Notes under the pieces: model-generated
The model's database searches: none
Told to the model about the DNA's origin: nothing
The model's input: only the letters and a program-made list of their open reading frames with translations
Part shown: one piece after another, positions 22,383-62,427 of the stretch
Layout: each line of letters opens with the position of its first letter
How positions within the stretch are numbered: the first letter of the stretch is position 1
Program-made: the position numbers and the translations under genes
Assembly (NCBI GenBank): GCA_009829735.1
Contig: CM020619.1
Location: forward strand, 29,910,063 to 29,974,062
From: Pyropia yezoensis
Lineage: Eukaryota; Rhodophyta; Bangiophyceae; Bangiales; Bangiaceae
Length of the DNA: 64,000 bases
Reading direction: 5' to 3'

Positions 22383-22413
<31 letters not shown>

Positions 22414-36707: not shown

Positions 36708-37245
36708 TGTAGCAGTACTCCCAACCACGAACCCCGAGTCAGGGAAGGAAGAGGAGTATTGCCGATATCCCAACTTGGGACACCGGAAGCAAGCACCTCC
36801 TCACAGCCGAACACAGAACTTGCGTGTGGTGAGCGGGTCAGCTCACCAAGGCACGAACAAGATGTGTCGGAGCCAGACGGTGTTTACTTGCTTGGCCAGC
36901 CAAGGTGGGCCCTCCCCACCTTGCTGTCCCTCCTTATCAACCCTCCTGACACGCTCACGCAACCCCTCAAAACACTCAGAAAATGAACACTCAACAAACC
37001 AATCATATCACTCCACATGCAAAGCACTCAAAGCGTAGAAATCCGTCTGGCTCCCGTGCAAAAATCCCAAGAAACAAATACCAGCAGCATTGCCCTGCTC
37101 TAGTATGTCGGAAGTCCTAGTCGAATTTCCGTCCAGAAGTCAGAAGTTTCACCATCGTGGGTCGGGTGAATTTCGACTTCCGGTCAGGTCCACTTGACCC
37201 GAATCTCCAAAGTATGGGTACCGAATTCCGGCCCAATCTCCCACA
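36708..37245 (-). repeat. probable 3' LTR of left truncated retroelement
   Basis: On the plus strand this begins TGTAGCAGTACTCCC and ends TCTCCCACA, so the ends are TG...CA with loosely matching inverted termini (TGTAGCAG against TGTGGGAG). It shares recognisable blocks with the 470-bp LTRs further right, for example CTTGCTGTCCCTCCTTATC against CCGCTGTCCCTCCCCTTATC. It contains the palindrome TCCCAACTTGGGA at 36768. Without a partner LTR the limits are provisional. Confidence 0.5.
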
Positions 37246-37829: not shown

Positions 37830-38345
37830 CTCGGTCGCCGGCGGTGGTACTCGGCCGCCGGTGCGGGGTCTTCTCTCCCCTTCGTGTGTGCGGGCGGGTG
37901 TGTGTCTTCCCGCCGCTGCTCCCTCGCGTCGGCGGGTCTGTCTCTTCCCGCCGTGCGGTTTGTGTCGCCGCTTGGGGTGGTGTCTCCCCCCTCCCCGCCC
38001 CTGTGTCGGGCGTCTTCGTTGTTGGTGGGGGCGTGGGTTGTGTCCCCCCCCTGTGTCCTCGTTGGCGGGGTTGTGTCGTCCCCGTTTGTCTTTGTTGGGG
38101 GGCGTGGGTCGTGTCCCCCCCCCCTTGTCGTCTCCGTCGGCGGGGTTGTGTCTTCCCCGCCCTGCCCTCGTGTTGGGCGTCGTCGCTGTCGGTGGGGGCG
38201 TGGGTCGTGTCCCCCCCCCTTTTGCTCTTCGTCGGCGGGGTTGTGTTTTCTCCGCGCTGCCCCTTGTGTCGGGCTTCTTTGTTGTCGTTGGGGGGTGTGG
38301 GTCGTGTCCCCCCCCTGTTGTTCAAGGCCCAGGTTGAGTTGACCT
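37830..38345. repeat. degenerate tandem repeats between LTR and antisense ORF
   Basis: The anchor GTGGGT(T/C)GTGTCCCCCC recurs at about 38033, 38104, 38200 and 38297, giving periods of 71, 96 and 97 bp. Each unit also carries a (C/T)GTCGGCGGGGTTGTGT block. The plus strand is strongly G/T/C-biased. In the element's sense this is the 3' untranslated zone just before the LTR. Confidence 0.75.
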
Positions 38346-38423: not shown

Positions 38424-40340
38424 ATGGCGGGTGAACCGAGTCGGCCTTTGTCCCCGTCTCCGACGTCCCTGTCGGACAAGCGACGGGCGGGAGAGGAGGT
38501 CCTCGGGACTGAGGAGTCTCTCAGCCGGGGGTCGGCCATGGAGACGACTCGTACCGGGCGAGGGTCGGAGGCGGCCGCCTCAGCCGTCCCCGCCCCATCA
38601 CCTCCTACTGCCCCCTCGGCTGTGGTCGCACCGGGGGATGGGTCTTCCAACCCGGTGGCGGAAGGGGATGTGACTCCCATCCCCCGCCTTCCTGAGTCGC
38701 GGCTGCTACTCCCGCGGCGGCCCCGTCCTCCTATGGGGCCCCGAGCCTGGGCGCCTCCCAAGTCAGTCGGGGAGCTTCCCGACTGTAAGCTCAAGGATGT
38801 CTACTTGATCATCCCCGAGCCACAGCGGACCGACGTATGGTACCGCCGGACTCGTCAATACCCCAACCAGGTGACTCTACCTGATGGGGTGGTCTGCGAC
38901 CTACCAGCGCTACTCTGCCTGGCGGACGCGCCTGAAGTCCAGGCGTTGTCAACCTCCCTCGCCATGGGGTCGGGCGACGTGGAGATCGACGACACCCACG
39001 CGGTGGTGTCTACCGAGTGGTGTGCCCTTCCTCGTCCCTACCTGGGCGGAGAGGACGCCCACGCCCAACACGGTGTGGTGCGAGAGGAGTTCCGACTCCG
39101 GGGCTCCTCGGGCTTCCTCATCCACGGGTCGCGGGTGGAGTTCACCCACGTACCTCTGGAGGAGCGTGAGCACCAGTACCCTCTTCTCCCAGGGTGGTGG
39201 GAGACAGTGGAGGTACCTTGTGGGTTTCCGGCTCGGATCCCCCTCCTCGTTGCCTACTTTGGCTCCGTGCTACGCTCCAGCTCGGAGGGCAACCGGGTCT
39301 TCGCCTACCTCGCCACGCACTGGGTGGTCGTGGTGGCTCGGGGCTGGTACTCCGATTTAGTCCATCGGGGTTACCTGTGGCACCTCCCACCGGCTCTGGT
39401 GGAGGGTATGGAAACCCTTGGCTTCCACTGGTTAGCCTTGGGCGCGGGGGACCTGGCTCCGTTCCTCCTCAAGGGTATGGTCACCCTGCACAATCAACTC
39501 GATTGGGCGCAGCTGAACCCCTTCCTCCGCCGCAACAAGCGTTCAGAGCCGGGGTTGGAGAGTGAGCCACCTCGGGAGTTCGTCCATGTCACCCATACTC
39601 TGGTGCAGGGGCAGCTGCTCCTGCGTGAGGGGTTGGGGGACCCTTCCCTTCCCTACGCGGAGGGGGTTACTCCCTCTACGTCGCCCCCTGGCTCTGGGTG
39701 GGCGACGTCATCGGCGACGACTCGTCGCGGTGCTCATCGAGGAGCCCCTCGAAGCCGCGGGCGAGCTGTGCCGACGTCTTCCCCGCGGGTCGCGACTCCG
39801 ACCTCGGGGGGTGTGGAGCCGACTCAGGCTCCACCCTTCCAGTTCCTCGAGCCCTTCCCCGACGTGGCGTTGGGTTCGCTACGGGTCCGAACTCCGGTCC
39901 CGATGCCGATTGCGCGTGGCGTCGGCGAGATGCTTCCCAACTTGGGAGCCATCATGTATGACGCCACGGTGGAGGCCTCTCTCGTGGCCTCCCTTGACAC
40001 GTTGGCTTGGGTCACCCGGCGTGTCAGTCACTTCCTCGCGTCGGGCGACTCAGCCACGGCGCGACAGTCATTGGCAGCTGAGGTCACTCGCCTCGCGGTT
40101 GGACACGAGTTTGTCCAACGGCTGCTGTCGACTCAGCAGCAGCTTCCGCGTCACGGAGGGAGTACCTCCGGACATCTTTCTTACGACGGGGATGGGTCCG
40201 CGAGCCGGCAAGCCCCTCCCAGTGCTTCCACTCCGGGGCCCTCCCGAGTGGGTTACGCCCCTCCGCTACCGGCCTACGACCCTGGGGGTTCGTGGTCGGG
40301 CGGTCCCTATAGTGGTGGGGGTGGGCATATGGAACGCTAG
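38424..40340 (+). CDS. antisense ORF of left chromovirus element
   Basis: An intact 638-residue frame (MAGEPSRPLSPSPTSL) on the strand opposite to pol, ending 128 bp from the pol stop, so the two are convergent. The first 110 residues are Ser/Pro/Arg-rich and disordered. The core (about 125-410) is hydrophobic and globular, with VWYRRTRQYPNQVTLP, ETVEVPCGFPARIPLLVAYF, FAYLATHWVVVVARGWYSDL and LLLREGLGDPSLPYAEGV. A second conserved block, LPNLGAIMYD, follows near residue 510. The core is homologous to the antisense protein of the complete element (47786-49644). I recognise no known family. Conservation of a long antisense frame in two elements argues for function. Confidence 0.8.
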   Translation: MAGEPSRPLSPSPTSLSDKRRAGEEVLGTEESLSRGSAMETTRTGRGSEAAASAVPAPSPPTAPSAVVAPGDGSSNPVAEGDVTPIPRLPESRLLLPRRPRPPMGPRAWAPPKSVGELPDCKLKDVYLIIPEPQRTDVWYRRTRQYPNQVTLPDGVVCDLPALLCLADAPEVQALSTSLAMGSGDVEIDDTHAVVSTEWCALPRPYLGGEDAHAQHGVVREEFRLRGSSGFLIHGSRVEFTHVPLEEREHQYPLLPGWWETVEVPCGFPARIPLLVAYFGSVLRSSSEGNRVFAYLATHWVVVVARGWYSDLVHRGYLWHLPPALVEGMETLGFHWLALGAGDLAPFLLKGMVTLHNQLDWAQLNPFLRRNKRSEPGLESEPPREFVHVTHTLVQGQLLLREGLGDPSLPYAEGVTPSTSPPGSGWATSSATTRRGAHRGAPRSRGRAVPTSSPRVATPTSGGVEPTQAPPFQFLEPFPDVALGSLRVRTPVPMPIARGVGEMLPNLGAIMYDATVEASLVASLDTLAWVTRRVSHFLASGDSATARQSLAAEVTRLAVGHEFVQRLLSTQQQLPRHGGSTSGHLSYDGDGSASRQAPPSASTPGPSRVGYAPPLPAYDPGGSWSGGPYSGGGGHMER

Positions 40341-40468
40341 AGTCAGTGGTCGAACGACTTGTTCTTTTCTTGGCGAGAAGAGTGGTGTGTGTTCGTCTCG
40401 TTTTGTATTGTGCCATAGTCGGCTTTGTTAGTAGAAAATCTTTGAAGAACCATGGTATGTGTTTGTAC

Positions 40469-43400
40469 TTATGGTTGGCTTGCCGCTCTGCTCTGACTTG
40501 GAGCAGGGACTTCATCCCCCGACGTACGAGTGCTACGTCGGCGTATAGATATGCCCGCAGCCTGGCAGTATCTACGGACCTTCTCTACTGGTAGGTCCTC
40601 TACAAACTCCCATGTGTCGGAAGTTGGTCCATACCCGAACCACCTGACTCGGAGCATGAGTCGCCCCGACTCATCGTATCCGTGTCCGACAAACTTGTCG
40701 AACACCGCCTCCAATGGATTATTGGAAGAGGTCGGCAAGGATGGGACTTTCCATGCTTGCAAAGCCCTTTCCCAAGCGGGATCTCCCTCTGGGGGTTCGG
40801 GTGCGCGAGTCGCGTGATTCCCATTTATTGTCCGGATACCATCATCACTCTCGATGGTTAACCGACGTCCGTCCGTTTTAAGGATGTGATATGGTCCCAG
40901 AGTTTTGAAGACCAATTTCCCTCCCTTATTGTCGTGGGAGTTGACATAAATCCAATCTCCAACTCGGAGCGGATCGCGACGATGTCTGACTCGGACATCG
41001 AAGTACCTCTTATAACGAGCTTGGGCCTTCTCCATAGTAGCCCGGACAAGGGGTATCATCTCCTCCAGTCTCTGGAGTAGGGAGGCTTTCGCCTGACTCG
41101 GTGTTTGAGTCGAAGGCTCACCCTCTGTCTGGGTGAGACGCTCCACAGCTACTGACGGAAGTCGTCGGGGACAGACAAAGGCAAACGGTGCCTCTCCCGT
41201 ACTACTGTGTACCTGGGAGTTGTATGCTGTCACGAGTAGTGTCGCATAACGAGCCCATGTGACTACATGGTCATGGACATAGTGACGCAACTGGCGCACT
41301 AAAGTCCTGTTGAATCGTTCCACCTGCCCATTGGTCTGGGGATGGTAAGGGGTGGCGAAGTTCGTCTGTACCCCCAACATCTTCATGACTCCCTGATACA
41401 GGACGGACGCAAACTGTGGTCCATTATCCGAAAGGATAGAGTCGGGGATGCCATAACTGGCAATCCAGACGTCGAGTAACTCACTCAGAACGTCCACGGC
41501 TGTGATTTTTTTGAGTGGGGATACCCGTGTGAGCTTAGTAAAGCGATCACACATCACCAGAAGGTACTCATATCCCTCTGGCGTTCGTGGTAGTGGACCG
41601 AGTAGGTCCACTGCTATCGCTGCAAACGGCTCTGTTGCAGGAAAGAGTCTCATGGAAGAAGTCTGCCGGGACTCCATGAGTCTATTCTTTGCGCAAGTCG
41701 CGCATGCGGCGACATACCCGTACACATCAGCCACGAGTGATGGCCAATAGTACTTCTTGCGTAGGGTCTGATACATCCTCGTAGACCCTGGGTGTCCACC
41801 CAACGGTGAGGAGTGCTCCCGTTGGAGGATACTCTTGCGTAACTCCTTGGGGACGACGACTTGCTTGTCCCCCTGGGTATATCCCATACGGCAGAGTATG
41901 CCGTTGTCATTCAGGAAGAACCGAGTCGGTTGAGCTTGGTCGAGCTCCTTCCTGAGTCGTCGACAAAGTTTGTCGGTCTCCTGTGCCTGGATAAACTCAT
42001 CCAAAGACACGGGTAATAGCTTGGCCATGCCAGGCATCCTCGGGTCGAGGACAGTTCCGGAGCGAGTGGTCACTGCCACATGAGGGAGTTCCTCAGGGAT
42101 GGGGGAAGAGTCTTTCCCATCCGTCGGTATGCGAGACAACGCGTCCGCAACCGCATGCTTCGGGCCTGGCCGATATTCAACGTCATAATCGAACTCAGCG
42201 AGGCAGAGTCGCCATCGATTGAGTCGGTTATTCGTACAGGCTGTAGTGGTGAGTATCCACTTCAAAGCCTTGTGGTCACATCGAATGAGGAACTTCCTTC
42301 CTTCGATGTACGGCCGTAGCATGGAGACTGCCCATACTACGCACAGGCCCTCTACCTCCGTCACAGAATAGTTCTTCTGGGCGGGTGAGAGTCCCTTACT
42401 GAAATAGCCAACGGGTAAATACTCCCCCGAAGGCTGTTGTTGGAGTAAGCAACAACCGAGTTGGTCGTAACTTGCCTCCACATCAACGATGTAGTGAGCC
42501 CCCGGTCTGGGGATCGCTAACACCGGTGGGTTGCAGAGGAGTTCTCGCAACCTATCAAACGCTTCTTTCTCCGGGGGTTTGGGAGCATCCAAGCGCTTGG
42601 GCATCTTGGAACTTACCAAGTGGTTCAACGGTGCAGACACTTTGGCATAGTTCGCCACAAAGCGTCTGTATACGATCCACATACCCAGGAAGCTCCTGAG
42701 TTGTGTGCGTCTGGGGGAACTTCGCCAGACGGATGGCCATGAGGTTCTTCTCATTGACCAGAATGCGACCTGGCCGGACTATATGGCCGAGGTACTCCAC
42801 CTCATTACTAAAGAGGTGACACTTCGTAGGTTTGAGTGTTACTCCTGCATCACCCAACAGGGTAAACACTCTGTCCAAGTGGGACAGGTGTTCTTCGGCA
42901 GTCCCGGAGAACACAATGATATCGTCTAGATACACTAGGGCGATCTGCCACTTGACTCCGGCAAGTATCAAGTCAATAGCACGCTGGAAAGTCGCAGGTG
43001 CATTGCAAAGCCCGAAAGGGAGCCGTGTACACTGATAAACTCCACAGTGACACGTGAAGGTGGTCAAGTGTCTGTCCTCCTTGCGGATGGGTATCTGCCA
43101 GTACCCCGCGTTGCAGTCCAACGTGGAAAAGTACTGTGCCTCACCGAGTGAGTCGAGGCAATCGTCCATACGGGGTAAGGGGTAACTATCCCTTACCGTG
43201 CGCTCGTTTAGCTTACGATAATCGATGCAGAGCCGCATCGTGCCGTCTGACTTGGGCACCAAGACTATGGGACTGGCCCACTCAGCAAGGCTCAATGACA
43301 CCCATGTCTTGCATCCGCTGGACCTGCTCTCGGGTGAGTTCCCGTGAGTCTGGTCCCATACGGTAGGGACTCAGGCGAACTGGCTTAGCCCCTGGCTTCA

Positions 43401-43475
43401 GGGTTTATACCCCGGGTTCCGCACCATTCTCCTTCAGGAGGATAAGGTACCCCGTTGGTGTGGGCTTACGCCCAG
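40469..43475 (-). pseudogene. pol: pol of left chromovirus: RT-RNaseH-IN-chromodomain
   Basis: Reading leftward: a pre-RT linker (LKPGAKPVRLSPYRMGP), then reverse transcriptase (FCIDYRKLN-type CIDYRKLNERT, SYPLPRMDDC, LVYLDDIIVFS), RNase H (DHKALKWIL, RLNRWRLCL, ADALSRIP), and integrase. The integrase has an H2C2 finger (REHSSPLGGH ... CATCAKNR) and core (VDLLGPLPRTPEG, ILSDNGPQF, YHPQTNGQVERFNRTL). A chromodomain ends it (VFDKFVGHGYDESG, RVRWFGYGPTSDTWEFVEDL). It is damaged: an in-frame TAA near 43424 before the RT, a frameshift near 43295 and another near 42720. Its 5' part (gag, protease) is absent; it abuts another element's RT at about 43475. Confidence 0.9.
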
Positions 43476-46400
43476 ATCACCACCACACCCAGCTTACCTG
43501 AGGTGATCTGGTGACCCAGATACTCGAAAGTCCGTTGAAATAAGGCGCTCTTCTTGGAACGCAGGGTTACCCCGGCGCTCCGCGAGAGGGTCAGTACCTC
43601 GTCGACATGTTGCACATGGTCATCCATGTTACGCGAGAAGACGATGACATCGTCCATGTACACCAGGCAGTTACGCCACTTCACTCCCGACAGTATAATG
43701 TCGATGGCCCGCTGGAATGTGGCAGGGGCGTTGGACAATCCAAAAGGCATCCGTAGGAACTCGTACACTCCACTGTGACAGACGAATGCCGTCTTGGGGA
43801 TATCCTCGTCCGCTACCGGGATCTGCCAGTATCCGGCATTGCAGTCGACGGTGGTAAACACCGTAGCTTCCCCCAGGGAGTCGATGCACTCATCCACCCT
43901 TGGCAAAGGGTAGGAGTCCTTCTTGGTGACCAAGTTGAGGCGTTGATAATCGATGCAGAACCAAGGGGTTTGATCCTTCTTCGGTACGATGACGACCGCG
44001 GCGCCCCACTCCGACATAAAGGTTCGGATCACTTTAGCGTCACTCCTCCTCTTCACTTCTCCGTCGACGATCTCTCGTTGCATGGGTCCCGCTCGGTGCG
44101 GTTGCGACCGGGCGGGTCGTGCGCCTGGTACAAGGTCAATACGATGTTGGGATGCCGCAATGGTACCCAAGGCTCCGCCTGTCCACATGACGTCGTGTAT
44201 CTTCAGCATCTGTCGTACCCCTTCGGCTCTCAAAGGGGGCCGATGGTCGAGGTCAGCCTCGGCCAAAGCCTTGAGGGCTTCTTCGTCCTTTGGCGGAATA
44301 TCCGCCGGTGACGGCGGTCGGCTGGACTTCCCGATGTCGGGCTCCTCCCGCTCGGGCGTCTCGGAGATTGCCAGTACTTCGAGTTGTTCCACTTGACCTT
44401 CCTCGTTAGGGGTAAGGCTGTCTGTATCGTAGAGCTCGGCGATCCCGAGGATAGTCCCGTTCGGAAGGGTGACGGCCTTGCGGCGATAGTTCGCCATCAC
44501 GAGCAGTGATGACCCCCCTGCTGGGAGGTCTACGGTACCGTTGTCCATTGTCAACCCATGGCGCTTGTAGGTTCGTAGGTTGTACTGGACTCAGCATATG
44601 CCTGCGACGTCGCAGTTAACCGGGAGGACTGTCTCCGATAACGGCTCCAAGCGAGTACGCTTGGCCAGCCGGTGTGTCTTCGGCTCTACGCTTGCGTATA
44701 CCTCAGCCACGTTAACGTGGCTCCCTTGTAGCGTCACTTCCCTGACAGCCGCTGTCTGTCCTGTCTTCGTCCCGTCGGCCTCTTGTAGCTCAACGGTCCT
44801 CCGTCCTGGCCGGATCGCATCCACGTGAACTTTGATGAATGTACACCCCAACATGCAGGGCACAAATAGGGTCTCAAAAACCAGGAAGTCGACCTCCGAT
44901 GTGAGTTCCCCGGCCGTCACCCGCAGCGACATCGCTGCTGTAGTTCGAATGAGACGACCGGTCGCGTCCTTCATGGTGGGTCCTCAGGTCACTCTAACTC
45001 GTGGGTGCCACTTGTCCGCGAGGGTACTCTTCCGGAAAAGGTTCGGTACGGCCCCCGTGTCCAGCACAGGATAGTATGATCTTGTCGACTGGGGGTCAGC
45101 CCTCAGGCTAACTAATACCTTGAAGTTCTCCAAGGTGAACAGCACGTGGCCTACTTCGATATTTGATGTACCTCGGGCACATTGGACAGTGCCCCTGGCT
45201 GATTCCAAGTTTCGGGGCTTCCCGTCCTTACCTCCCCTTCTTGGAGGCTGGTCATCATTCCCCTGACTCTGTGCCGTCGGGGTAGGAAGGTGTACCCGGG
45301 GACTGATGCGGCGCCGGCTCAACCGCGCTCTCCGTGGAGCTCTCCCCGCGGCCGTACGGCGTGGTTTGCTCGGGTTACCCAAGCGACCCCGTGTCACCAT
45401 TCCTCTTACTCGTTTCCCGCACCTGGCTGAGCAGCGTCTTCCGGTGTGTCCGGGTAAGAAGTTGCCTCCTCGACTGCCAGTACTCCTCCTGGAGCCTGCT
45501 GCTGTGCTGGTCCCGGCGATCTGGCGGGATAATCCCCAGTGGCTGCCTTGCGTTGCGCCGCTGCCCGTCGAGACTCCTCCGGGATGAGCGGGCACGAAGA
45601 CACCCAGTGCTGGGGATCCCCGCACAACATGCATCCGGATGTACCGGCCGAGCCGGATGTCCGCGTCAGGGTCGCTCCATAGCCTCGTGTGGCTGCATCG
45701 GAGGCCCGAGTGTCCGCTCCTTGGTAGGAAGTGGGTCCTCGAGTCAACCGAAACATGCACTCCCCCAACCGGTTAGGCCGGCCCGCAACCTGCTGAGCTG
45801 CGTCCGTGCGTACCGGCCACGTTGGCATGGGTTGATGGCGGCTCCCCGTAGTCGGGGAGTACCCCGCGGTCCGCACATACGGGGCGCGACGTCCCGCGCC
45901 CTCGCTGACCTCGCACTGGGTCCCCGCAGGGGACATTTACGCCACCGAACCTTGCTCATTAATCACCGGCGTACCTGGTAGCAACACGTGGCCCTGTTCG
46001 TGGACCAGGGGTTCCTGCTCAACCGTGGGTGCGCACTCGGTCGCCACCATTACTGGTGCGCCCTTACGTTCCACCTTCTTTTGCCTTGATACCGGGGTGG
46101 GACTGAGCTTGCTCCTCTCCCCCTCGGGCTTCGGGGCCGGGGCGCACTCTGGGAGAAGCACCTGGTAGGCGTCCCGAAGCGACTTGCACACGTGCATCAG
46201 TCCTAGCTTCCACAGCTCGTAGTCGAGCTCTTGGATCCGGTGACAGAACATCTCCTCATCCTCCTTGGACTGGGCGGTGACGGTGCGAAGGGCCCGGTAG
46301 TGGTCTTCGCACTTGTCCTCACTGAGGTAGCTGCTCAGCAGCTCCTTGAGAATACCACGGTAATCCATTGGGGTAGCTGCGACCCTCATTCCCGGCATCG

Positions 46401-46886
46401 GGGCTGACTGGCGGAGCATGCATCGTACCCGTTCATTAACAAAGAACGGGAGGATCTCCAGGGCTAGCCCCTCGTTAACAAGTGCCTTGTCTGCGGCTGC
46501 CTTGACGCCGGTCAAAAAGCCGATGACTGCGAACGAACGTCCGTTCGGGCCTCCGAGCATCGAAATCCCCTTCATCAAGGTCTGGATGGAGCGGATCGCC
46601 CGATGCAAGGTGTTACGCATCGATTCCGATACTATAGTAGAACGGTCTTCCAAGCGGTACCGTTCCGGCGTCAGTATCGACCAGAAGCCTTCGTTGACGA
46701 TCTTTTTGTCAGCGTCCTAAGTATCCAGTCGCTTGGCCAGTTGGTGAGTGAACCCGTCGGACGCCATCCGCTTCAGTCAGCTCGTAGTAACCTGCGCAGT
46801 CATGGCCTGGACAAGTGAGGCTGGTACTTCTATCGTCGGTACCTCGGCTTGCCGAGTCGCTTGGCTTCCTCCGTCGCGAGGGTCCT
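43476..46886 (-). pseudogene. gag-pol: gag-protease-RT of host (interrupted) retroelement
   Basis: Reading leftward: gag capsid-like region (45937-46653, helical, e.g. LALEILPFFVNERVRCML), then a CCHC zinc knuckle in another frame (CMLCGDPQHWVSSC, near 45600-45640). A retroviral-type protease with intact DTG (VLDTGAVPNLF, near 45040-45066) follows, then a protease tail (44591-44974). Reverse transcriptase (43466-44554) has FCIDYQRLN, SYPLPRVDEC, LVYMDDVIVFS and FEYLGHQITS. The sequence stops just after the RT palm, where the left element begins. RNase H is missing. Several frame changes show it is inactive. The 5' part of gag lies beyond the nested insertion at 56923-57519. Confidence 0.85.
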
Positions 46887-46891
46887 GAAAC

Positions 46892-47361
46892 TGTGGCAAA
46901 AACCTCTCGCACTCGCGACACCCAAGTTGGGGCGGTGTACAAGGGCTGCCTCCCGTGTCTGGGAAACCGGAAGAAGTGCAAGTCGCACACACTCTATCCC
47001 TGTTGTGAGGCAATCCCCCCACTGACAAACAAGAAGATGGTGTGTGGTCCAACAGTTTCTTGGTCGGGACGGGGAAGCAGGGCCAAGCCCCGCTGTCCCT
47101 CCCCTTATCCCCCCAGGGTCCCCTCAGAATCTCGCCACTCAGAATCTCCCACCCCAGCACCTGCCCACCGGGCCACACGAAAATTCAAGACGATAAATGC
47201 AGGAAACCCTCAAATCCAAGTTGGATTTACTACTAAGCTAACTATCCCAAACTTAGGCAATACGGACCCAAATGCAGGGGAAGGAACGGGTCAGGCTAGT
47301 GGCCTGCGGCCCCTTGCTTGGCACGTGTTGCCCCCCTACCTGGGGGTTCAAAACTGCCACA
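46892..47361 (-). repeat. 3' LTR of complete element
   Basis: 470 bp, TGTGGCAAAAACC at the left and CTGCCACA at the right on the plus strand. Nearly identical to 56448-56917: mismatches cluster in the outer 80-90 bp at each end and the central ~280 bp looks identical. Contains the 17-bp palindrome AAATCCAAGTTGGATTT (47212-47228). Confidence 0.93.
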
Positions 47362-47376
47362 CTCCCTTCTCTTCAG
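47362..47376 (-). promoter_or_regulatory. polypurine tract of complete element
   Basis: Minus-strand CTGAAGAGAAGGGAG sits directly against the start of the 3' LTR. This is the expected position and composition for the plus-strand primer. Confidence 0.8.
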
Positions 47377-47785
47377 TTCCGACCGACCCGGTCGGCCCTG
47401 CGAGGGGGCGTGTAAACGCTCGTCTCGGCGTTGGGGGCGCGACTTGCTGTCCCCCCTCGAGTACGTAACGTGGACATGGAGGCGGTCACGTTGACCGCCC
47501 CTCTCCTCAAGCTTGCCCACTCGGCAGCTTGCTCTCCCCGGTTCTCACTTCACCAACACTAACACATCCCCTTTACCTTCCCCTGGGACGCCCCACGCTG
47601 GGGAGGCCACCCATTTACCCACGATCCGAGCCCCCCTCAACTCGAGGCGGGTCTCGTACCGCTGCAGCCAGGGCGTCTCTCCTTAAGTTGGGGAGAGCCA
47701 TGGTGACCCCGGGCGTGGAGACTGACTCTCTTGATGAACGTATGGGGGACACCTCCTACGCTGCAGCGCCCGCCGGGCTTCCGGC

Positions 47786-49644
47786 GTGGGCTCTGCAGTT
47801 GCTCCGGGGGATGGAACTCCTGCGTCACCCGGCTTTGGGTTGACGGTGGGATCTCTCCCGGAGGCGGGCCGCGTTGTCCCACGTGAAGCATTGGGGCGGT
47901 GGTTTTACCCCGCTTGGCCTCTATATGAGGAGGGATTGACTGTGCTTCGCTGTGGCCGACCTGGCCCAGCGATAGGTCGGGTATGGGACCGCCTACGGGA
48001 GAAGTATCCCCGTAGGTTCGGGTTCCCTGCCGGCCTCAGGACGGACCAGTTTGCCTTCCTGGACGATGAGGAAGTCGAAGACGTACAGCGGGCCAAGGCC
48101 ATGGTGGACCGCGGGGGAACTATCCCGGGTCCCGGCGACTTGCCGACCTTTACCTGGGACGCGGTGGCAACTCGCCCCCCGTACCTTCACGAGGCCGATC
48201 CGCACACTCATCACTTTGATGTGCGGATGGAGAAGGACTTCCGGCGAGGTCCCTACTTGGTGACCTCGGCTCAACTTGAGTTTCCTCAGCAGTCCGCTGC
48301 TAAAAAAAAGAGCAGTACTACCCCAAGAAGCCCGAGTGGTGGCCTCAAGTTGAGGTCCCCTACGGGTTCCCTGCGTTGCTACCACAGTTGCTCGACCACT
48401 TCGGCTCCGTCATGTTGACGGCTAGCCCGGATCAGCTGGTGTGGGCCATGTTGGCAACCCAGTGGCTCCTCGGGGTCATGTCGACCTGGGTGTCTTGTGT
48501 CCAGCGGCGAAGGATGCTCTGGCATCGTCCCCTTCGGCTTATCCAACGATTGGAGCAGCTCACCCCTCAGCTAGTTGCTGAGAGATGCTCATCAGGACAA
48601 CTCACTCTACTTGAGGAGATGCTCCGCCTCCACAAGTTCATCCAGTGGGAGAGCATCGAGCACAAGTTGCGCCGCCCCGCCCGCGGGCCCAAGGACGATG
48701 GCGCACTTCGCCAGTGCGTATGGGTCGCTCGTGAACTTCACGACGGCCGTGTGGTACTACGAGAGGGGCTGGGCATCGGGGACTACCCGTATGCCCCGGG
48801 GGTGGATCGCCGCACTGCGCCGCCCTCGGACAAGGCCATAGTGATGGCCGTGCCCTCTCACGATGACCATATGACTCAACCCACAGCGGGGGCCCCGAGT
48901 AGGGGTCGCAGTTACACTCGGGCACCGCCACCTCGGCGTGCCCCTCCGCTTCCTCCTGTCCCCTACCAGCCGCACGGGGACATCCCGATAAGCGTGGCCG
49001 TTAAGTCTTCCACCCCGGTGTTCCCCAACTTGGGGGCCACTTTTCTGACGGTTTACCGCAAGTTGGTGTTACCGGCCACGCCTCTGACCACAGAGATGAT
49101 GATCACCACGTTGATGCGCACCATGTCCTGGTTGGCCGCGTCAACCGCATCCCTTCAAGTTTCCGAGACTCCTCAACTAGAGGAGCGCGTCCGTACGGCG
49201 GTGGCGACCGCGAGTTGCGAGTCGGCGGCGAAGCTCATGACGGCTGAGTTGGCTCGCACCAGGGCTATTGTGCCCCAGCCAGCCCCACTTGGGCGTGGCA
49301 AACGTCGGGCGAGCCGGGCATACTCGCCTCCTCGCCGTCGTCGCCGACGCTCGCGGCGTTCTCCCTCCGTATCGGAAGACGAGTTGTCTTATTCCGCCTT
49401 GGAGTCCTCTACTCCGTCAGAGTCGGAGTCGGTCCGGCGTCTGCGTCGCCAACTTGCACGCAAGACCAAGCAGAAGGGTAGCCGCGGTCGTCGCCACTTG
49501 CGCGACCGTGAGGGGCGCGACGGGTCCGACTTGGAGCCGCCGGCCCCGCCGACTGGTGGGGAGCGTTATCGACGTGGGTCTCGCCGCTCGCATCCACGTG
49601 AGGGCGAGGGCCGTGGGGTTGGAGAGTCTAGCATGCATGCCTAG
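47786..49644 (+). CDS. antisense ORF of complete element, split by a frame change
   Basis: The plus-strand protein is convergent with pol, whose stop lies at about 49756. The first part (from ATG 47786, GRWFYPAWPLYEEGL, VWDRLREKYPRRF) continues in the -1 frame after an A8 run at 48302-48309. There EQYYPKKPEWWPQVEVPYGFPALLPQLL matches, with gaps, the intact antisense protein at 38424 (HQYPLLPGWWETVEVPCGFP). Further shared blocks are MLATQWLLGV, VVLREGLG..PYAPGV and FPNLGATF. The C-terminus is Arg/Ser-rich (SPPRRRRRRSRRS). An upstream frame (47700-47843) may be the true N-terminus after another frame change. Function unknown. Confidence 0.7.
48304..48310 (+). promoter_or_regulatory. A AAA AAG heptamer at frame junction
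   Basis: In the zero frame the codons are AAA AAA AAG. A -1 slip here leads exactly into GAG CAG TAC, the frame homologous to the left element's intact antisense ORF. The heptamer has the form of a -1 ribosomal slippery site. A one-base change in an A run is the simpler explanation. Confidence 0.4.
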
Positions 49645-49755
49645 TTGGCAGCTGCCTTTGTTGTGAGAGTGTGAGGGTTAGGGCTGTAGTTCAAAGCCAC
49701 TCTGCGTACCACTTCGACTTCAAGCACTCTCTTGGCCCTGTTACTCGGCCTTCCC

Positions 49756-52700
49756 TCACGCTGAGGGGGGGCTGTTAGGGTCTATATCTTTCCGGGCACA
49801 GTATGCCCGGACCGTCTCAGCGGGAGGGTCCTTCACATATTCCTACGCATCATCTTTGGCCTTATAGCCGAACCAACGCAACCTCAACACGAGGCGGTTA
49901 GTGTCCTCAGCCCAGCCGTGGTCGATGAACTTATCGAACACGTAATCCTGCGGGCCATGTTTGGCCGCAGGCAGCGAGGGCAGGCGCCACGCTTCGAGCG
50001 CACGCGCCCAAGCTGGATCACCTGCAGGCGGTGGTGCAACTTTGACCAGATCCTGTCCGTTTACTGTGCGGACCCCATCGGTACTTTCGATGGTGAAGCG
50101 CCGCCCATCAGTACGAAAGACATGGTATGGTTCCTTCGTCTGAAATACCAACTTACCCCCAGTTGGGGTGTGTGAGTGAACCAGTATCCAGTCACCCTGC
50201 TCGGGGACATGCTTAGCTTTGCGCCCCTTTTTGTCAAAGGTACGCTTGTAGCGCTTTTGCGCTTTGTCCATCTCAGCCCTGACTTCAGAGATGAGTTTTT
50301 CAAGCCTTGCAGCGAACTCAGCCTTACTCTCAGTAGGAGTTGGCGTACTGCCACCATCCTCCCAAGTTGGGAGCGGCAGCCGCACGGCGATAGACCGCAT
50401 GCGACGGGGGTTCACAAACGCGAGGGGTACTTCCCCGGTAGATGAGTGAACCTGCGAGTTGTAGGCAGTAGTAAGAATAGAAATGTATTGGTCCCACGTT
50501 TTCACGTGCTCACTCACATAGTGGCGCAGCTGCCTAACAATAGTTTTGTTGAAGCTCTCTACCTGCCCATTAGTTTGTGGGTGGTAGGGGGTGGCATAGT
50601 TTGCGTTAACCCCCAACATATCCAGCACTCCCTGAAACAGTACGGACGCAAATTGTGGTCCATTGTCCTATAGTGTACTGCCCGGGATGCCATACGCGGC
50701 AACCCAGTGATGTAGGAAGGCTGACACGAGCGACATGGCCGTGATCTCTGCCAGAGGGATCGCTCGCGTAAGTTTCGTGAAGCGGTCGCAGATGACCAGG
50801 AGGTACTGGTTGCCCTCCTCGGTCACTGGCAGTGGCCTAAGGATGTCCATTGCCAACGCGGCAAAGGGCTCCTTGGCCGGGAACAGTAGCATAGCCGTAG
50901 TAGGCCGCCTTTCCATCAGACGGTTCTGCGCACAACTTGTGCAGGCAGCCACCCGACTATAGATGTCGACCACCCTGGACGGCCAGTAGTACCTGGTCCT
51001 CAGGGTCTGGTAGAGTTTACTAGACCTCAGGTGTCCACCTGTGGGAGCGTTATGCTCCCTCTCAAGGATACTGTCCTTGAGAGATGCGGGTGTGGCGTTC
51101 TGAGCTCCTGGGACCGTTGGAACCCGGGAGACTGACTTGGGACCCGGCTGGCAGCGTTACGTGGGACCACGCGCTGGCCGAGGATCCCTGCATCGGTGGC
51201 CCGGGGCAGTGGCGACACGCCCGGTGCCCTGATTGGTCACCCGGAGCGGTGGACTTGCCGGGTTGGGGCATACTGACCTTCGGGTTATTTGTTTGATTTT
51301 TCGCATTTGTTTTCCTTGCGTGATTTCGTGTCTTTCCCCTTTTTCCCACTGGGTTTTTTTCGGGGATTGACATTTGTGTGTGGGGGGATTTTGCTTGCTT
51401 TTCGTGTGTTGGCCCGGTGAGCGGCCGGTGCCTTGCTGGCACTTGGCCCGCTGGGGGCGCCCTCTGGGGGCCTCGCTCAGGGCCCCTGGAGGGGCCAGAG
51501 GGGGAGGTTCTTGAGGGGCGCTCCGGGGTTCTCCCCGGGGCCATCTTGTGAAATCAACAGTACTTTGGGTTCCTTCTCCCTCGGGCTTTCGTCCTATTTA
51601 CCTTTGCCTCGTATCGTGGCGGGCGAGTGGATCAGCAAGGGCTCTTACCTGTTCCTTCCTGGGCTTCGTACTGTGGTCTCTGTGTGTGTGGTTGTGGTTT
51701 CTGGGTCCGGGAATCTGGGTCCCATTACGCTACAGCGGGGACGACTAGTTGTTCGGTCCCCTGGAATACCCCCCTCCTCAAGAGGAGGCCATCGTCTCCG
51801 ATAAAGAACCGCGTCTCCGCCCCCGTATCCAGCGTATCCCTTTGCGACTTGCAAAAGGGGTCCTCGGCCTGGGCCTTCACCACCTCGTCCAGGGACAGGG
51901 GCAAGTTCTTCTTGTTCCCTGGCGCCTCGGGGTCCAACGCCTGACCCGAGCGCGTGACTACCCCCACGATGGGGATGTCCTCATCGACTGAGTTAGTGTC
52001 CAGCCCCTCGGTAGGTACCCGATAAAGGCCGTCGGCACGGGCATGTTGCCTGCCAGGTCGGTACTCAATATCAAAGTTGAAGGGTGCCAGTCGCACCCTC
52101 CACCGGTTGAGACGAGTGTTCGTACAGTCCGTCTTGAAGATGAACTGCAACGCGCGGTGGTCACAGTGGAGGAGGAACTTCTCAGCCTATAGGTAATGAC
52201 GAAGTGACGTCACCGCCCACACCACTGCGAGTCCTTCCAACTCGGTGACTCCGTAGTTCTTCTCAGCCGAGTTCAGCCCCTTGATGAAGTATCCCACCGG
52301 CAAGTACTCCTTGTCCGGCTGCTGCTGAAGCAACACACTACCAAGTTGGTCGCAGCCCGCGTCCACATGCAGGAGTAGTGGCCTCCCAACCTGGGAATAG
52401 CCAAGATAGGGGGCTTCAGCAGAAGGTCCCGAAAGGTCTCAAAGGATTCCTGCTCCCCCCGACTTGGGGGAGGCAGGTTCTTCGGTAGCGTTGAGCGAAC
52501 TAGCTCATTCAATGGCTTCACCACCTTGGCGAAGCCCTTGGTGAAACTTCGGTACACGTTACACATCCCGAGGAAGCTCCTCATCTGGGTCTGGGTCCGG
52601 GGGTACTGAGCCTTACGGATGGCCCTTAAGTTTTTCTCGTTGACACTGAGACGCCCCGGACGGACAACATGTCCCAAGTATTTCACCTTTTGAGTGAAGA

Positions 52701-54387
52701 GGTGGCACTTACTCGCCTTCAGTGACACACCGGCGTCAGCAAGTAGCTTGAACACCTGGCCAAGATGGCCAATTTGTTCCTCCGGACTTCGGGAGAGCAC
52801 CATGATATCGTCTAGGTACACGAGACAGATCTGCCACCGTAATCCGGCCAGAATCTTGTCCATAGCGCGCTGGAAAGTTGCCGGCGCGTTGCACAGTCCA
52901 AACAGTAGTCGCTTGCGCTGGTAGGTACCACAGTTACAGGTAAAGGTAGTTCTATGCCTGTCCTCCGGGGCCATGGGAATTTGCCAGTACCCCGCGTTAC
53001 AGTCCAGGGTAGAAAACACGTTCGCCTCCCCCAGAGAGTCCAGACAGTCGTCCATCCTAGGTAGGGGATAACTGTCCTTCACCGTGCTCTCGTTGAGCTT
53101 ACGGTAGTCGATACAGAACCGGGGGGTCCCATCAACTTTGGGGACGATAACCACCGGACTCGCCCACTCGGCGTTGCTGGCCTCGATCACATCGAGGGCC
53201 TCCATGCGAGCGACTTGCTCCTGAACGAGGGCCCTTGTACGGGGCCCTCCCCTATATGGTTGTTCGCGTATAGGGAAAGCACCGGGTTTCTACTCGATCC
53301 GGTGCTCGGTGGCTCTCATGAGTCCCAATTGACCATCCCACAACTTGTGATATTGGAACATGAGGCGTTCAACTTGAACCCTCAACCTGGGTGGAACACT
53401 CTCCATGTTCACATGGGGCCGAGGAGAGGCGGCCGACTTGGCTTGGTGATTCTCCTTTCCAGACTTCGGGTAGCTACTCGCGCCCGCGTTGAGGGTGACC
53501 GCTACTACTGGTCCCTCATGTTGGTCGATATAGCCAAACTTGGCTCCCGACTTGAAGTACTCGGGCGACGAGCTCAGTTTCATAACCTGGATCCTCCACG
53601 GGACTCCGGCTTTGGAGTCCATCGTGCCAAGGGCAGCATGCACTTGGTGCTTGCGAGCAAGACGGGGGTAAGGGTGCACCAACCCGTTCCCCGAATAGTC
53701 AGTTACAACGTCCACGTGCGCCACCGAGTTGGGGGGCAACGTGACTTTACGAGCTCAACGCAGGGTAGCAGTAAACCCTTCTCTCACAGAGCAAACAGGC
53801 TTCGACTGTGAGACTGTCACAGGAGCCACAGACTTTCCCTTACCAAGGATGGGGATGGTCTCCCCATTCATCGACTTGACCCAATACTCAGGGCCACAAA
53901 TCAAAAGCACTTGTGTTACAACACAAGGGGTACCCAGAAGCAGGGGTACCGATATATTCTCAACTACTCCATAGGTCACGTCGACCTCCTGGGTTCCCAC
54001 GCTAGTTGGTAGGGTCACGGCACCAACGATGGGAAGTACCCCGCCATTGATGTCGATCAGGTGGTCAGCTTGAGACTTCCAGCGTTGGAGCTTCATCTCC
54101 TTTGGTAATAGCGACCTGCGTATCAAGGAGGCTCCTGACCCGGTATGAAGTACGATACGGGCACAACAGGCACGGCCGGGGGCTAGTTGCACCCGTCCAG
54201 CCACCTCGAAGCTCTCACCCGTCAGCACCGCGATGACCCGACGTGGGTTTACGTTCTTGGGGAGTCCTACCCGAGGTGGGCGGACTCCCTTAGGTCGCCG
54301 CAGTATCCGGCAGGGTTGGTTCGTCCTCTTGGCCCACTTGGCCGAGGCTGCCGTTCTGAGCTTAGGACGGGCAGCTTCAACGGTCAT
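49756..54387 (-). pseudogene. pol: protease-RT-RNaseH-IN-chromodomain of complete element
   Basis: Reading leftward: protease (VLHTGSGASLIRRSLL, with His at 54144-54146 where the catalytic Asp is expected) and a linker (53290-53739). Reverse transcriptase follows (53205-52273; CIDYRKLNESTV, SYPLPRMDDC, LVYLDDIMVLS), then RNase H (TNTRLNRWRV, 52150 leftward). Integrase has CTSCAQNR, MDILRPLPVTEEG, YHPQTNGQVESFNKT and is cut by the solo LTR at 51091-51734 just before the H2C2 finger. A chromodomain ends it (VFDKFIDHGWAEDTN, RLRWFGYKAKDDA) with TAG at 49843 where Trp is expected; the frame continues to 49756. Frame changes and these lesions make it inactive. Confidence 0.9.
51091..51734. mobile_element. 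solo LTR nested in pol
   Basis: 644 bp beginning TGTGGCGTTC and ending TTACGCTACA on the plus strand (TG...CA, with TGT(G/A)GCG inverted ends). It is flanked by GCGGG at 51086-51090 and 51735-51739. Removing it rejoins the pol reading at VVPA / SLKDSILEREHN, matching the sister element's VVVPKELRKSILQREH. There is no internal retroelement sequence, so it is a solo LTR of a third family. It is strongly G/T-rich on the plus strand. Confidence 0.9.
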
Positions 54388-56328
54388 TCGTTTCCCGCCG
54401 ACTTGGCGTCTGAATCTGAGGGCGAAGGGGAAGACGACGAGTCCGAGGACGACGTGTCCGCCTCCTCCGCCGAGGGTACGGCGACCGCCACTACCAGTCG
54501 AGGACCACCCTCGCGGCGTAAACGTGCTTCGTTCGTAGCCGACTTCTTACTCGCATTCTTAACAAGTTGCTGAATGCGCTTACTCAACTTGGGGCAATCA
54601 TATGCCCAGTGTCCATCGGAGTTGCAGTTCCAACAACGATTGTCAGTTCCCGGAGGGGTTGTCCGACTGGGAAAGACGAAGAGGTACCCTGGGAAGTTCC
54701 CACGGCAGCTACTACTCTTTCCTTGCGGACTCGGCGTGCCTCTCTCAGCTCTCTGGCCTGGCGCGCCTCCTCGCGTTCCTTGGCCAACTCGGCCTGACGC
54801 TCTTGGCGTTGTTCCTCCCGCAACTTGCGGTAGGCCTCACCTCTGCGGCAGGCGAACCTAGCCAACTCGGCCAGTGTCGCCCGGGCAGTGCTATGCTCCC
54901 GGGTCTCCATGCGGACTGACCAATGGAGTCCCTTCACAAACCGACTCTTCACCACAGCTTGTGGATGAAGAAACCCACAAAGGTTGTTTGGCTTACGGAC
55001 TCGCTCCACAAAGGACAACTCGTCCTCAGCCTCTTCCTGGTGAGCTTGGGTAAACTCCTCAACTTGAGAAGCGAACGCTGCTTCATTCACCATGGCTCGC
55101 AACAACCAGTTGACGAGCTCCAAATAGGACGTCACCTCACCAGTGTCTGCACTTGAGAAACTGGGCATGAAGGACATAAGTTCTGTCCGCAGGTCGCCCT
55201 TCGTAAACTCCTGTAGCATATAGAAAGCCATGCCTTCACTTATGGCATTGTCGTCGCAGGCTTTTGTGAAACGACGTAGAAACTCAAAGACACGGAGGGG
55301 GGGACTTCCTTCCCACTCCGCTTCGTGCCCAAAAGAGTGAAGTGCATTCTTTTTGGCACGGTCCATGGCTCGGGCCTGGACAGGACCATACGCCACCGAC
55401 TTGTTGTGGAGGGCGTAGGTCTCACAGTCAAAGATGCTCTGGTGGACCGGGTTGGCTACCTGGATCTTGGGCGGCACCTCACGTTGAGGGAACAGCCGCT
55501 GAGGCACTCTGGTAAGTTGACCCGCAGTGCCTGTCGTCTGTCGCGGCGAGCTTGGTGGAGCCGCCGGCTTTTCCGAGGGGAACTCCCCCGTGAAGGGCGT
55601 ACGCCCCACCGAAAATGGTGTGGCTCCCTCGTTGGGAGTCACAGGGGTCGCCCCCTGTTCGGGGCGACCCGAGATAGGCGTGAGGAGGGACTCCCCCTGC
55701 GCCTGCGGGCTCGAAAGCCCCAATCCGGTTTGGACATTAAGGCCATCTGGCAAACTCGGCACCATCTGATTCAGAATAGTATTCGTCATCGTGACCACTA
55801 GGTCCGGCAAAGTCTGCCGTAACACATTGGTCGCCTCCCGACGGACAGTTTCCGCGAGGAGTGGATTTTCAACTCCCGTTGAGTCTCGGTCCGCCTCCGG
55901 GAGTCCATCTGAGGGGTAACCACAATCCTCAGGGTCTCCACCGGGGGCATGGGCGCGAGCCCATCGCCGATCAACGGAGGTCCGCCGTCCTTCGAAAGCC
56001 TAGTTGGCGACGGCTCCATGCCAAAGTTGGCTCCCACCCGGGTGGAACCCGCGGGGACAGTCCTCTCACCTTGGGACGTTCCCGTTGAGTGTACCACACG
56101 GTGGCCAGACTTCGGCTCACCCACATCAGAAGTGTCACCCGAATGAACTCCCGACTGAGTCGGGGTGGCCTGTTGCCCGCCCGCACTTCCAGTCCTGCTG
56201 GCTTGAGGGGCCTCCAGTCCCTCTGCGACCCCAGGTAAACCTACCTGTGTCTCACCAGTATTCGAAGGCACTGAAGTACGTGCGTCACCCGTGTACTCCC
56301 ACGACGACGGGGGGTCCGAGCTAGCCAT
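54388..56328 (-). pseudogene. gag: gag of complete element with CCHC zinc knuckle
   Basis: The start is ATG 56326-56328 (MASSDPPSSWEYTG), about 100 bp after the PBS. A Ser/Pro/Gly-rich N-terminus changes frame near 55850 into a capsid-like region (55825-54584; VFEFLRRFTKACDDNAISEG, ELVNWLLRAMVNEAAF) and a charged coil (REEQRQERQAELAKEREEAR). The zinc knuckle CWNCNSDGHWAYDC (near 54605-54650) is in a third frame. It binds element RNA. An acidic Ser-rich tail (54384-54587) leads into the protease. The frame changes suggest decay. Confidence 0.8.
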
Positions 56329-56431
56329 GTTGGCTAACGATCCTTATGACACGGTCCAAGTCCACCGTTCTTCTGAAACAGAGGGCCCCCTACACCCGGG
56401 TGCACCCGGAGGTAAAGTTTACCTCTGTCCC

Positions 56432-56445
56432 CTGCTGCTCCACCA
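56432..56445 (-). promoter_or_regulatory. primer-binding site of complete element
   Basis: Minus-strand TGGTGGAGCAGCAG starts two bases after the 5' LTR end. It begins TGG, as complements of a tRNA CCA end do. It is not the common initiator-Met type site. The same 14 bases serve the host element at 57726-57739. Confidence 0.75.
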
Positions 56446-56447
56446 CA

Positions 56448-56917
56448 TGTGGCAAAAACCTCTCGCACACGCGACACCCAAAATGGGGCGGTGTACAAAG
56501 GCTGCCTCCCGTGTCGGGGGAACCGGAAGAAGTGCAAGTCGCACACACTCTATCCCTGTTGTGAGGCAATCCCCCCACTGACAAACAAGAAGATGGTGTG
56601 TGGTCCAACAGTTTCTTGGTCGGGACGGGGAAGCAGGGCCAAGCCCCGCTGTCCCTCCCCTTATCCCCCCAGGGTCCCCTCAGAATCTCGCCACTCAGAA
56701 TCTCCCACCCCAGCACCTGCCCACCGGGCCACACGAAAATTCAAGACGATAAATGCAGGAAACCCTCAAATCCAAGTTGGATTTACTACTAAGCTAACTA
56801 TCCCAAACTTAGGCAATACGGACCCAAATGCAGGGGGAGGAACGGGTCAGGCTAGTGGCCTGCGGCCCCTTGCATGGCACGTGTTGCCCCCCTACCCGGG
56901 GGGTCAATACTGCCACA
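56448..56917 (-). repeat. 5' LTR of complete element
   Basis: 470 bp, TGTGGCA...TGCCACA, partner of 46892-47361. It should carry the promoter on the minus strand; no clear TATA box was picked out. Carries the same 17-bp palindrome at 56768-56784. Confidence 0.93.
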
Positions 56918-60737: not shown

Positions 60738-61958
60738 TTGGGTTGTTACAGTAGGCGGCGTCGCCTCATGTATGGCAAGAGCAGTTGGCGGGGTATTTTA
60801 TCCGCCCGCTCCGAGGTGGGTGAGTCGTATCCGATTCACATGACCTTGACGTACCAGGATTCTGGTAGGTCCGGGTCGGTATGTCCGACGATGCTCTCCA
60901 CCAGGTATGGGATTCCCTCCAGGCGCACCGGGTCATCTGACCGGTGTATGGTAAGAGCTTCATAAAGCAACCCAGCCGGAACGAGCTGAAGCTGTTCCGG
61001 CTTCCGCGCCGGTGTGAAATCGTTCATACTGGTGCGTTGTATCTCCTTCTCGGAACGGAAGATGACTGAGTGATCATGTTTTTGTGATTTCTGGTACGGT
61101 CCTATGACCGGTTGCATGAGCTTGTCCCCTCGGAACTTCTGGTGTCCTATGTACACGCAGGCACCTGTTCCCAGGGTCGCGTTGCGCACCCGTAGTCCGG
61201 CGTCGAAGTTTTTTTTGTATCGAAGCTGAGTTCGGTAAAAGGCATCCTTGAGCTTAGGGATGATCCACGATAGCTTGGCCAACCAAGCCCGGTGGATGCG
61301 CTCGGCCAAACGGCCATCCGGTCTGTCATACCGAGTTCACCTGCCCGGTGGCAGCGTTAGGTTACCGACGCCCATAGGCATGCCCCACTCCAGAGGGGCA
61401 ATGTTCGTGCTCAGGTGGGGCCTGGCATTCTATGCCAAGGTGAGTACGGACAGGAGCCTGTCCCTCGTGTTCGTGTGCTCAGACACGTAGCATTGGAGCA
61501 TCTTGACGATGGTGCGGTTGAACCGCTCCACCTGCCCGTTGGTTTGTCGGTGGTAGTCGGAAGCCCGACGTGGCTCGATCCGGAACATGCCCATGACCTC
61601 AGTGCAGAATGCTGATGTCATATTTGCTCCGTTCTCGGAGAGGAGTTGCTTCATCACGCCGCAAGAAGTGATTCAGTGGTCAACCACTGCGTTCATGATG
61701 GTGTATGCCGTGTCATCCGGAATGGCTTCCGCTCGTGACAGCTTTGTGAAGCGGTCCGACATGACCAGCATATACCTGTTGCCTTCTTCCGTTCGCGGAA
61801 GCGGCCCGAGTATGTCGATAGCGACTTGCTCGTTGGGCCCATCTGGTGGAAATAGTCTTATAGGGGATGCCCGCCTATGAAGACTCATACGATTCCGTGC
61901 ACACGGGTGGCACCCCCGCACGTGGTCGACTACGTCGACGGCCATTGCTGGCCAGTCA
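60738..61958 (-). pseudogene. pol: integrase and chromodomain of host element's 3' half
   Basis: Reading leftward from 61958: end of an H2C2 finger (HPCARNRMSLH), integrase core (VAIDILGPLPRTEEGN, LSENGANMTSAF, YHRQTNGQVERFNRT) and integrase C-terminus (RYKKNFDAGLRVRNA). A chromodomain follows (YLVESIVGHTDPDLPESWYV) with TGA at 60836 where Trp is expected; after it the frame continues IGYDSPTSERADKIP. A small frame change lies near 61660. The 5' side is cut by the orphan LTR. Confidence 0.85.
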
Positions 61959-62427
61959 TGTGGCAAAAACCGCTCGCGCACTCACCACCCAAGTTCGGGT
62001 AGTGCACAAGGGCTGCCTCCCGTGTCGGGGGAACCGTAAGAAGTGCTAGTCGAAAACCCACTGTCTCTTTTTTGGGGCCATCCCCCTACCAGTGAACAAG
62101 AAGATCTTGTGTGGGCCAACAGTTTCTTGGTCGGGACGGGGAAGCGAGGCCAAGCCCAGCTGTCCGTTCCCTTTTCCCGCCAGGGTCTTCCCAGAATCTC
62201 GCCACTCAGAATCTTCCACCCAAGCGCCTGCCTACCGGGCCACACGAAAATTCAAAACGATAAAATGCAGAAAACCCTCAAATACATGTTGAATTTACTA
62301 TCAAGCAAAGTATCTCCGACTTAGGGAAATTCGGGATCACAAGCCAAGGGAGGAACGGGTCAGACCGGTTGTCCCCCGTCCGAGTATAGCGCGCTTTGCC
62401 CCGCTGCGAGGCGCCAGTTCTGCCACA
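61959..62427 (-). repeat. orphan LTR, diverged relative of the 470-bp LTRs
   Basis: 469 bp, TGTGGCAAAAACCGC at the left and CTGCCACA at the right, collinear with the LTRs of the complete element but with many substitutions, especially in the last 130 bp. Flanks (AGTCA and GGCCG) do not match. Neither side has a PBS or PPT. It is an old LTR left by deletion or recombination. Confidence 0.85.

What the first reader, a model, noticed from the sequence alone, without database searches (positions are those of the whole stretch)
38424..49644. Convergent antisense ORF conserved in two divergent chromodomain retrotransposons
Two elements with clearly different pol sequences each carry a long plus-strand ORF between the 3' end of minus-strand pol and the 3' LTR. 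The stops are only about 110-130 bp from the pol stop. The proteins align over roughly 290 residues (VEVPxGFPA, FGSV, LATxW, LREGLG, PYAxGV, PNLGA), with no known family evident to me. Antisense ORFs are known in some plant Tat-lineage Ty3/gypsy elements; I make no homology claim to those. A conserved accessory gene in algal chromoviruses would be new.
Basis: partly seen in the sequence, partly recalled or inferred. Interest (0 to 1): 0.88.

Follow-up and report, generated by a model that had tools for sequence, protein, structure and literature searches.

The report
Antisense accessory gene in seaweed retrotransposons
Several families of jumping genes in the nori seaweed carry, on the strand opposite to their usual genes, an extra protein-coding gene that selection has kept intact and that matched no described protein family, which hints that these elements encode their own regulator or helper.

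Summary
The host is most likely Pyropia yezoensis (nori). The plus-strand ORFs (38424-40340; 48304-49644) are antisense to pol, end 128 and 111 bp from the pol stop, and lie between pol and the 3' LTR of two Ty3/gypsy families (A, B). Better-preserved copies encode 638- and 647-aa proteins, 31% identical over 445 aa (E 1e-46). A third family (D) has a more distant homologue, 145 bp from its pol stop. No stop interrupts 59 of 70, 75 of 99 and 63 of 63 genome matches (A, B, D). pN/pS is 0.34 (A) and 0.26 (B). Homologues occur in Pyropia vietnamensis and metagenomes. Family C shows none at the two places seen. So this is a selected accessory gene, not a chance ORF. No Pfam family, PDB sequence or convincing fold match was found. 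It is placed like the antisense ORFs of plant Retand/Grande and fungal Boty elements, but lacks the Retand TRP28 domain by profile search. Most likely role (inferred): a soluble regulator or cofactor of the element. Corrections: the first 'element' is an A-C composite, B's window copy is frameshifted, chromodomain matches are below Pfam's cut-off.

The parts
36708..37245 (-). 3' LTR of the family A copy (538 bp; 539 bp in an intact copy)
   Evidence: 97.2% match to both LTRs' counterpart in an A copy with two identical LTRs
38027..38315 (.). GC-rich tandem-repeat stretch between 3' LTR and aORF; candidate (untested) promoter region
   Evidence: Tandem Repeats Finder rows
38424..40340 (+). Family A antisense accessory ORF (638 aa)
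   Evidence: Open frame; 70 genome matches; pN/pS 0.34; homologous to B and D
40341..40468 (.). 128 bp between the convergent stops of aORF and pol (A)
40469..43404 (-). Family A pol from about residue 367: RT, RNase H, integrase, weak chromodomain-like end
   Evidence: Pfam; tblastn
43405..46891 (-). Fragment of a different family, C (gag/RT region), joined to A; not part of the A element
   Evidence: 40 scored relatives at 82-83% over 2.2 kb; no match in the A copy
46892..47361 (-). 3' LTR of family B (470 bp)
   Evidence: 97.66% identical to 56448-56917; GAAAC target duplication
47700..48367 (+). N-terminal part of the B aORF, out of frame with the rest in this copy
   Evidence: tblastn with the 647-aa B protein of L032, 86-88% identity
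48304..49644 (+). Family B antisense accessory ORF, open part (446 codons); other copies have 647 aa
49645..49755 (.). 111 bp between the convergent stops of aORF and pol (B)
49756..54396 (-). Family B pol (degraded here, internal stops)
   Evidence: tblastn with A pol, 50-61% identity; stop position
54584..55825 (-). Family B gag
   Evidence: 51% identical to A gag over 274 aa
56448..56917 (-). 5' LTR of family B

Best explanation
The ORFs are an accessory gene of a related group of red-algal Ty3/gypsy elements, placed on the antisense strand between pol and the 3' LTR and read towards pol. Shown: the same position and orientation in three families; related proteins in all three; purifying selection in two; homologues in a second Pyropia species and in metagenomes. 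Inferred: it is transcribed on its own from the 3' LTR or the repeat-rich stretch before its ATG, as reported for Grande gene23. The protein is probably soluble, with a mainly helical core, a C-terminal helical module that could mediate self-association, and flexible tails. It most likely acts as a regulator or cofactor of the element's own expression or transposition, perhaps in the nucleus, comparable in role to what has been suggested for gene23/TRP28 proteins or HTLV-1 HBZ.
For: Position in A, B, D. A-B protein similarity E 1e-46, A-D E 3e-9. pN/pS 0.34 over 30 A copies, 0.30 between A subgroups; 0.258 over 16 B copies and 0.228 over 29, with variable B sites 79/68/170 by codon position. 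A-B codon-position identity 0.47/0.56/0.36 over 473 codons, plus frame scoring 454 against 125-292 in the other five frames and at most 73 in 100 shuffles. P. vietnamensis proteins at 50-57% identity; 45 rows from a metagenomic relative, its own row included. Model with 22 of 32 ten-residue blocks of residues 101-420 at pLDDT 85 or more and disordered ends. No strongly hydrophobic segment in A, B or D (largest 19-residue Kyte-Doolittle means 1.38, 1.23, 1.54).
Against: No transcript, protein, localisation or function was seen; all of these are inferred. Loci for pN/pS were the 30 best-scoring matches, which favours low ratios. The aORF is less constrained than pol (0.30 against 0.09 between A subgroups), and its overall divergence is only slightly below that of the upstream non-coding stretch (0.0215 against 0.0246 between subgroups). 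Five fixed differences between A subgroups show no significant codon bias (p 0.25). One antisense frame also has a low ratio (0.44 in A, 0.34 in B), though that frame holds 15 to 24 stops in the copies counted. Family C amplifies without a detected aORF, so the gene is not needed by every Ty3/gypsy element here.
Confidence: 0.6

Rival explanations
1. What matters is the antisense RNA, not the protein: transcription towards pol gives an RNA that overlaps the 3' end of pol and feeds dsRNA silencing or transcriptional interference; the frame is incidental.
For: Convergent stops only 111-145 bp apart make overlapping transcripts likely; PMC7264820 (passages) raises the dsRNA idea for plant elements.
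Against: Selection acts on the encoded protein: pN/pS 0.26-0.34 and frame-specific conservation between families. Both roles could coexist.
Confidence: 0.1
2. The protein is not a regulator but a structural or protective helper: a particle component, an RNA chaperone, or a suppressor of host silencing.
For: Disordered, partly Arg/Ser-rich tails (the B C-terminus) are compatible with RNA binding; fast divergence relative to pol (31% against 61% A-B identity) is compatible with conflict with the host.
Against: No profile relation to gag (hhalign probability 0.1%); no CCHC pattern in the eight aORF proteins tested. Neither excludes it.
Confidence: 0.22
3. An envelope-like gene.
For: It sits at the usual env position, between pol and 3' LTR.
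Against: Opposite orientation to sense env-like ORFs (passages); no strongly hydrophobic segment in A, B or D (the usual threshold of about 1.6 is recalled; P0044, a metagenomic relative, reaches 1.79).
Confidence: 0.03
4. A chance open frame in GC-rich DNA, or a captured host fragment carried as a passenger.
For: GC-rich DNA gives long chance ORFs; B's window frame alone is within the null.
Against: Same place and strand in three families, purifying selection, second species. No host-gene relative appeared among the listed matches, but only the best candidates are scored.
Confidence: 0.03

Closest known systems
Antisense aORF of plant Retand/Grande/RIRE2 (Tat-type) elements, TRP28 domain (PF04195)
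   Same: Antisense, between pol and 3' LTR, kept in most copies and across species; tandem repeats in the same region (about half of Retand groups; A here). Passages of PMC7264820 and PMC11963269.
   Different: PF04195 gives no match in the whole genome at E <= 10 nor in 26 aORF homologues; host is a red alga; Retand is a non-chromovirus lineage reported in flowering plants.
brtn of fungal Boty elements (Botrytis)
   Same: Antisense extra gene in an LTR retrotransposon outside plants (PMC7264820 and PMC8365987, passages).
   Different: No brtn sequence was available here, so homology is untested.
HBZ of HTLV-1
   Same: Antisense gene at the 3' side; an antisense promoter lies inside the HTLV 3' LTR (passages).
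   Different: No Pfam domain in the aORF; HBZ's bZIP nature is recalled, not compared here.
Env-like ORFs of plant LTR retrotransposons
   Same: Same place, between pol and 3' LTR.
   Different: Those are in sense orientation; the aORF is antisense and has no strong hydrophobic segment in A, B or D.

Membership tests
Ty3/gypsy LTR retrotransposon (host element) | RT-RNase H-integrase order of pol | tested here: met
   A: RVT_1, RT_RNaseH, then Integrase_H2C2 and rve, above cut-off
Ty3/gypsy LTR retrotransposon (host element) | LTR pair with TG..CA ends and short target duplication | tested here: met
   A copy: identical 539-bp LTRs, CGCTG; B: 97.66%, GAAAC
Chromovirus | Chromodomain at the integrase C-terminus | tested here: inconclusive
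   Chromo matches below cut-off: A 18.6 and D 23.8 against 25.1 bits; family C end: none
Chromovirus | RT placed in the chromovirus clade | not tested
   No reference RT set at hand; chromodomain-bearing Gypsy elements outside chromoviruses exist (PMC12477816, passages)
Retand/Tat-type antisense aORF | Antisense ORF between pol and 3' LTR | tested here: met
Retand/Tat-type antisense aORF | TRP28 domain (PF04195) | tested here: not met
   0 matches at E <= 10 in the genome; none in 26 homologues; remote fold homology not excluded
Boty brtn | Sequence homology to brtn | not tested
Envelope-like protein | Sense orientation and transmembrane segment | tested here: not met
   Antisense; no strong hydrophobic segment in A, B, D
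Gag-derived protein | Profile similarity to gag of the same elements | tested here: not met
   hhalign probability 0.1% against A and B gag
Known PDB fold | Structural match of core or C-terminal module | tested here: inconclusive

The most novel reading that the evidence does not exclude
The aORF founds a new protein class: an element-encoded regulator that arose in an ancestor of several red-algal Ty3/gypsy families and independently reached the same antisense, pol-to-3'LTR design as flowering-plant Retand/Grande, fungal Boty and HTLV-type retroviruses. LTR elements would then repeatedly need a second gene driven from the opposite end, for instance for feedback control.
Probability: 0.4. Interest if true: 0.8.

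Novelty: new variant of a known kind. Interest (0 to 1): 0.62.

Why it matters
Antisense accessory genes are reported for flowering plants, a fungus and retroviruses, and their role in retrotransposons is unknown. A selected example in red algae, in several families with many intact copies and in two Pyropia species, gives an independent data set, conserved residues and a delimited core domain to test, and shows that the design is not tied to a recognisable TRP28 domain. The P. vietnamensis relatives are named only as hypothetical proteins, so gene counts and repeat libraries in Bangiales may be affected.

Full report
Where it is. The window is G000:C2:29910063-29974062 of a 107.5-Mb assembly in 11 contigs. 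Its three large contigs (43.59, 34.33, 29.39 Mb) match the three scaffolds reported for Pyropia yezoensis (43.6, 34.3, 29.4 Mb; PMC7423979, passages only). That paper says 48% of the genome is repeats, with LTR retrotransposons predominant.

The observation. The two plus-strand ORFs exist at the stated places. Their stops lie 128 bp (A) and 111 bp (B) from the minus-strand pol stop. The window proteins match with E 2e-22. A's open frame (665 codons) is longer than in all 500 Markov-1 resamples (max 453); B's window frame (446) is not (max 493). B's frame is short because this copy carries a frameshift near a poly-A tract at about 48300; the N-terminal part of the protein is found just upstream in other frames. 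Sixteen of 30 fetched B loci have one stop-free 647-aa frame from a shared ATG.

Anatomy. A full-length A copy elsewhere (G000:C3:13705370-13715605, 10,236 bp) has two identical 539-bp LTRs, TG..CA ends and a CGCTG target duplication. Sense is the minus strand: gag with a zinc-knuckle match just below cut-off (20.0 against 20.8 bits), then a pol frame with RT, RNase H and integrase above cut-off; a protease-like stretch is a reading from memory, with no Pfam match. The aORF lies between pol and the 3' LTR, preceded in the window by a tandem-repeat stretch. In the window, A keeps its 3' LTR (36708-37245), the aORF and pol up to about 43404, that is pol residue ~367, some 50 residues before A's RT domain; there it is joined to family C. 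B (46892-56917) is an insertion with 97.66% identical LTRs and a GAAAC duplication; its pol has internal stops. A and B share a PBS-like TGGTGGANCAGC next to the 5' LTR and a purine tract before the 3' LTR.

Third family. The flank of the A copy holds a further element, D, with an aORF of 705 aa from the ATG chosen. Its stop is 145 bp from D's pol stop. A-D protein similarity is E 3e-9; A-B is E 1e-46. Identities of the pol C-terminal part to A are B 61%, D 44% and C 31%, so aORF and pol diverge in the same order, the aORF faster. Family C shows no aORF at the two places seen.

Copies and selection. Genome searches, which score only the best candidates, gave 70 matches for A (69 candidates scored; 59 matches without stops), 99 for B over 422 residues (75 without) and 63 for D (63 without). 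A search with a P. vietnamensis relative also gave 17 of 108 rows at 50% identity or below, suggesting a further subfamily. In 30 A loci pN/pS is 0.34: 0.30 between two subgroups, 0.36 and 0.42 within them. The last 455 codons of pol, in the 25 of 30 loci without stops there, give 0.09 between and 0.17 within. Sixteen full B copies give 0.258; 29 of 30 B loci over the 422-codon part give 0.228, L050 having been dropped because its match began one residue later. Variable sites by codon position are 79, 68, 170 in B and 42, 19, 63 in A. Between A and B codon-position identity is 0.47, 0.56 and 0.36 over 473 codons, and the plus frame scores 454 against 125-292 in the other five frames.

Results against. 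The loci are the best-scoring ones, which favours low ratios. Overall aORF divergence is only slightly below that of the upstream non-coding stretch (0.0215 against 0.0246 between subgroups, 0.0038 against 0.0051 within). Five fixed differences between A subgroups show no significant codon bias. One antisense frame also has a low ratio (0.44 and 0.34), but holds 15 stops in the A copy and 23-24 in the two B copies counted.

Relatives. Three searches of 5.8 billion proteins returned P0001-P0050; the first two scored only 8000 candidates each. Four of the eight are named hypothetical proteins of Pyropia vietnamensis (50-57% identity); the others listed carry no name and come from ena, jgi or lgn sources. 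A tree of 16 proteins (13 of the P proteins plus A, B, D) separates family A with P. vietnamensis relatives, a large group around P0008, the P0044 pair, B and D; B and D are long branches and the deep order is unsure. Of 26 homologues (two window ORFs and 24 of the 49 P proteins then in hand) one matched one Pfam family, at E 0.053; no PDB sequence matches.

Comparison. [quoted passage not shown] They report a nuclear Grande protein transcribed from its own promoter and a TRP28 domain in 97% of Retand clusters, with tandem repeats in about half. Position, orientation, persistence and repeats agree with our elements; TRP28 does not. A 2012 survey lists P. yezoensis among species without retrotransposon chromodomains in the data then available (PMC3350952, passages). 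I found no report of an antisense accessory gene in red-algal retrotransposons in the searches made, which cover open-licence papers only and whose lists were read as listings.

Verdict. A real, selected, antisense accessory gene, new (as far as searched) as a protein family and as a host lineage, of a known structural kind. Transcription, localisation and function are inferred.

Noticed in passing
window 43285-43410: Family A pol is joined to family C with no A 5' LTR at the junction, leaving two RT domains in a row; the event behind it (deletion or recombination) is unexplained.
   Followed up: partly
window 60836-61981 and 61957-62328: A degraded integrase (36% to A pol) that resembles family C, next to a stretch 83% similar to the B LTR (through L064).
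   Followed up: partly
L062 5576-6748 and L064 16-2190: Family B copies nested with A and C elements, B aORF frame still open in L064 (724 codons stop to stop); nesting of these families seems common.
   Followed up: no
families A and B, inner edge of the 5' LTR (window 56428-56447 for B): Shared PBS-like TGGTGGANCAGC; which tRNA primes these elements was not tested.
   Followed up: no
L062 3-2672 and 2660-4444 (minus): Family A gag and pol are in separate, slightly overlapping stop-to-stop frames, which may mean frameshifting; not tested.
   Followed up: no
window 12000-24000: G+C of 68-85% with many long overlapping ORFs on both strands; not examined.
   Followed up: no
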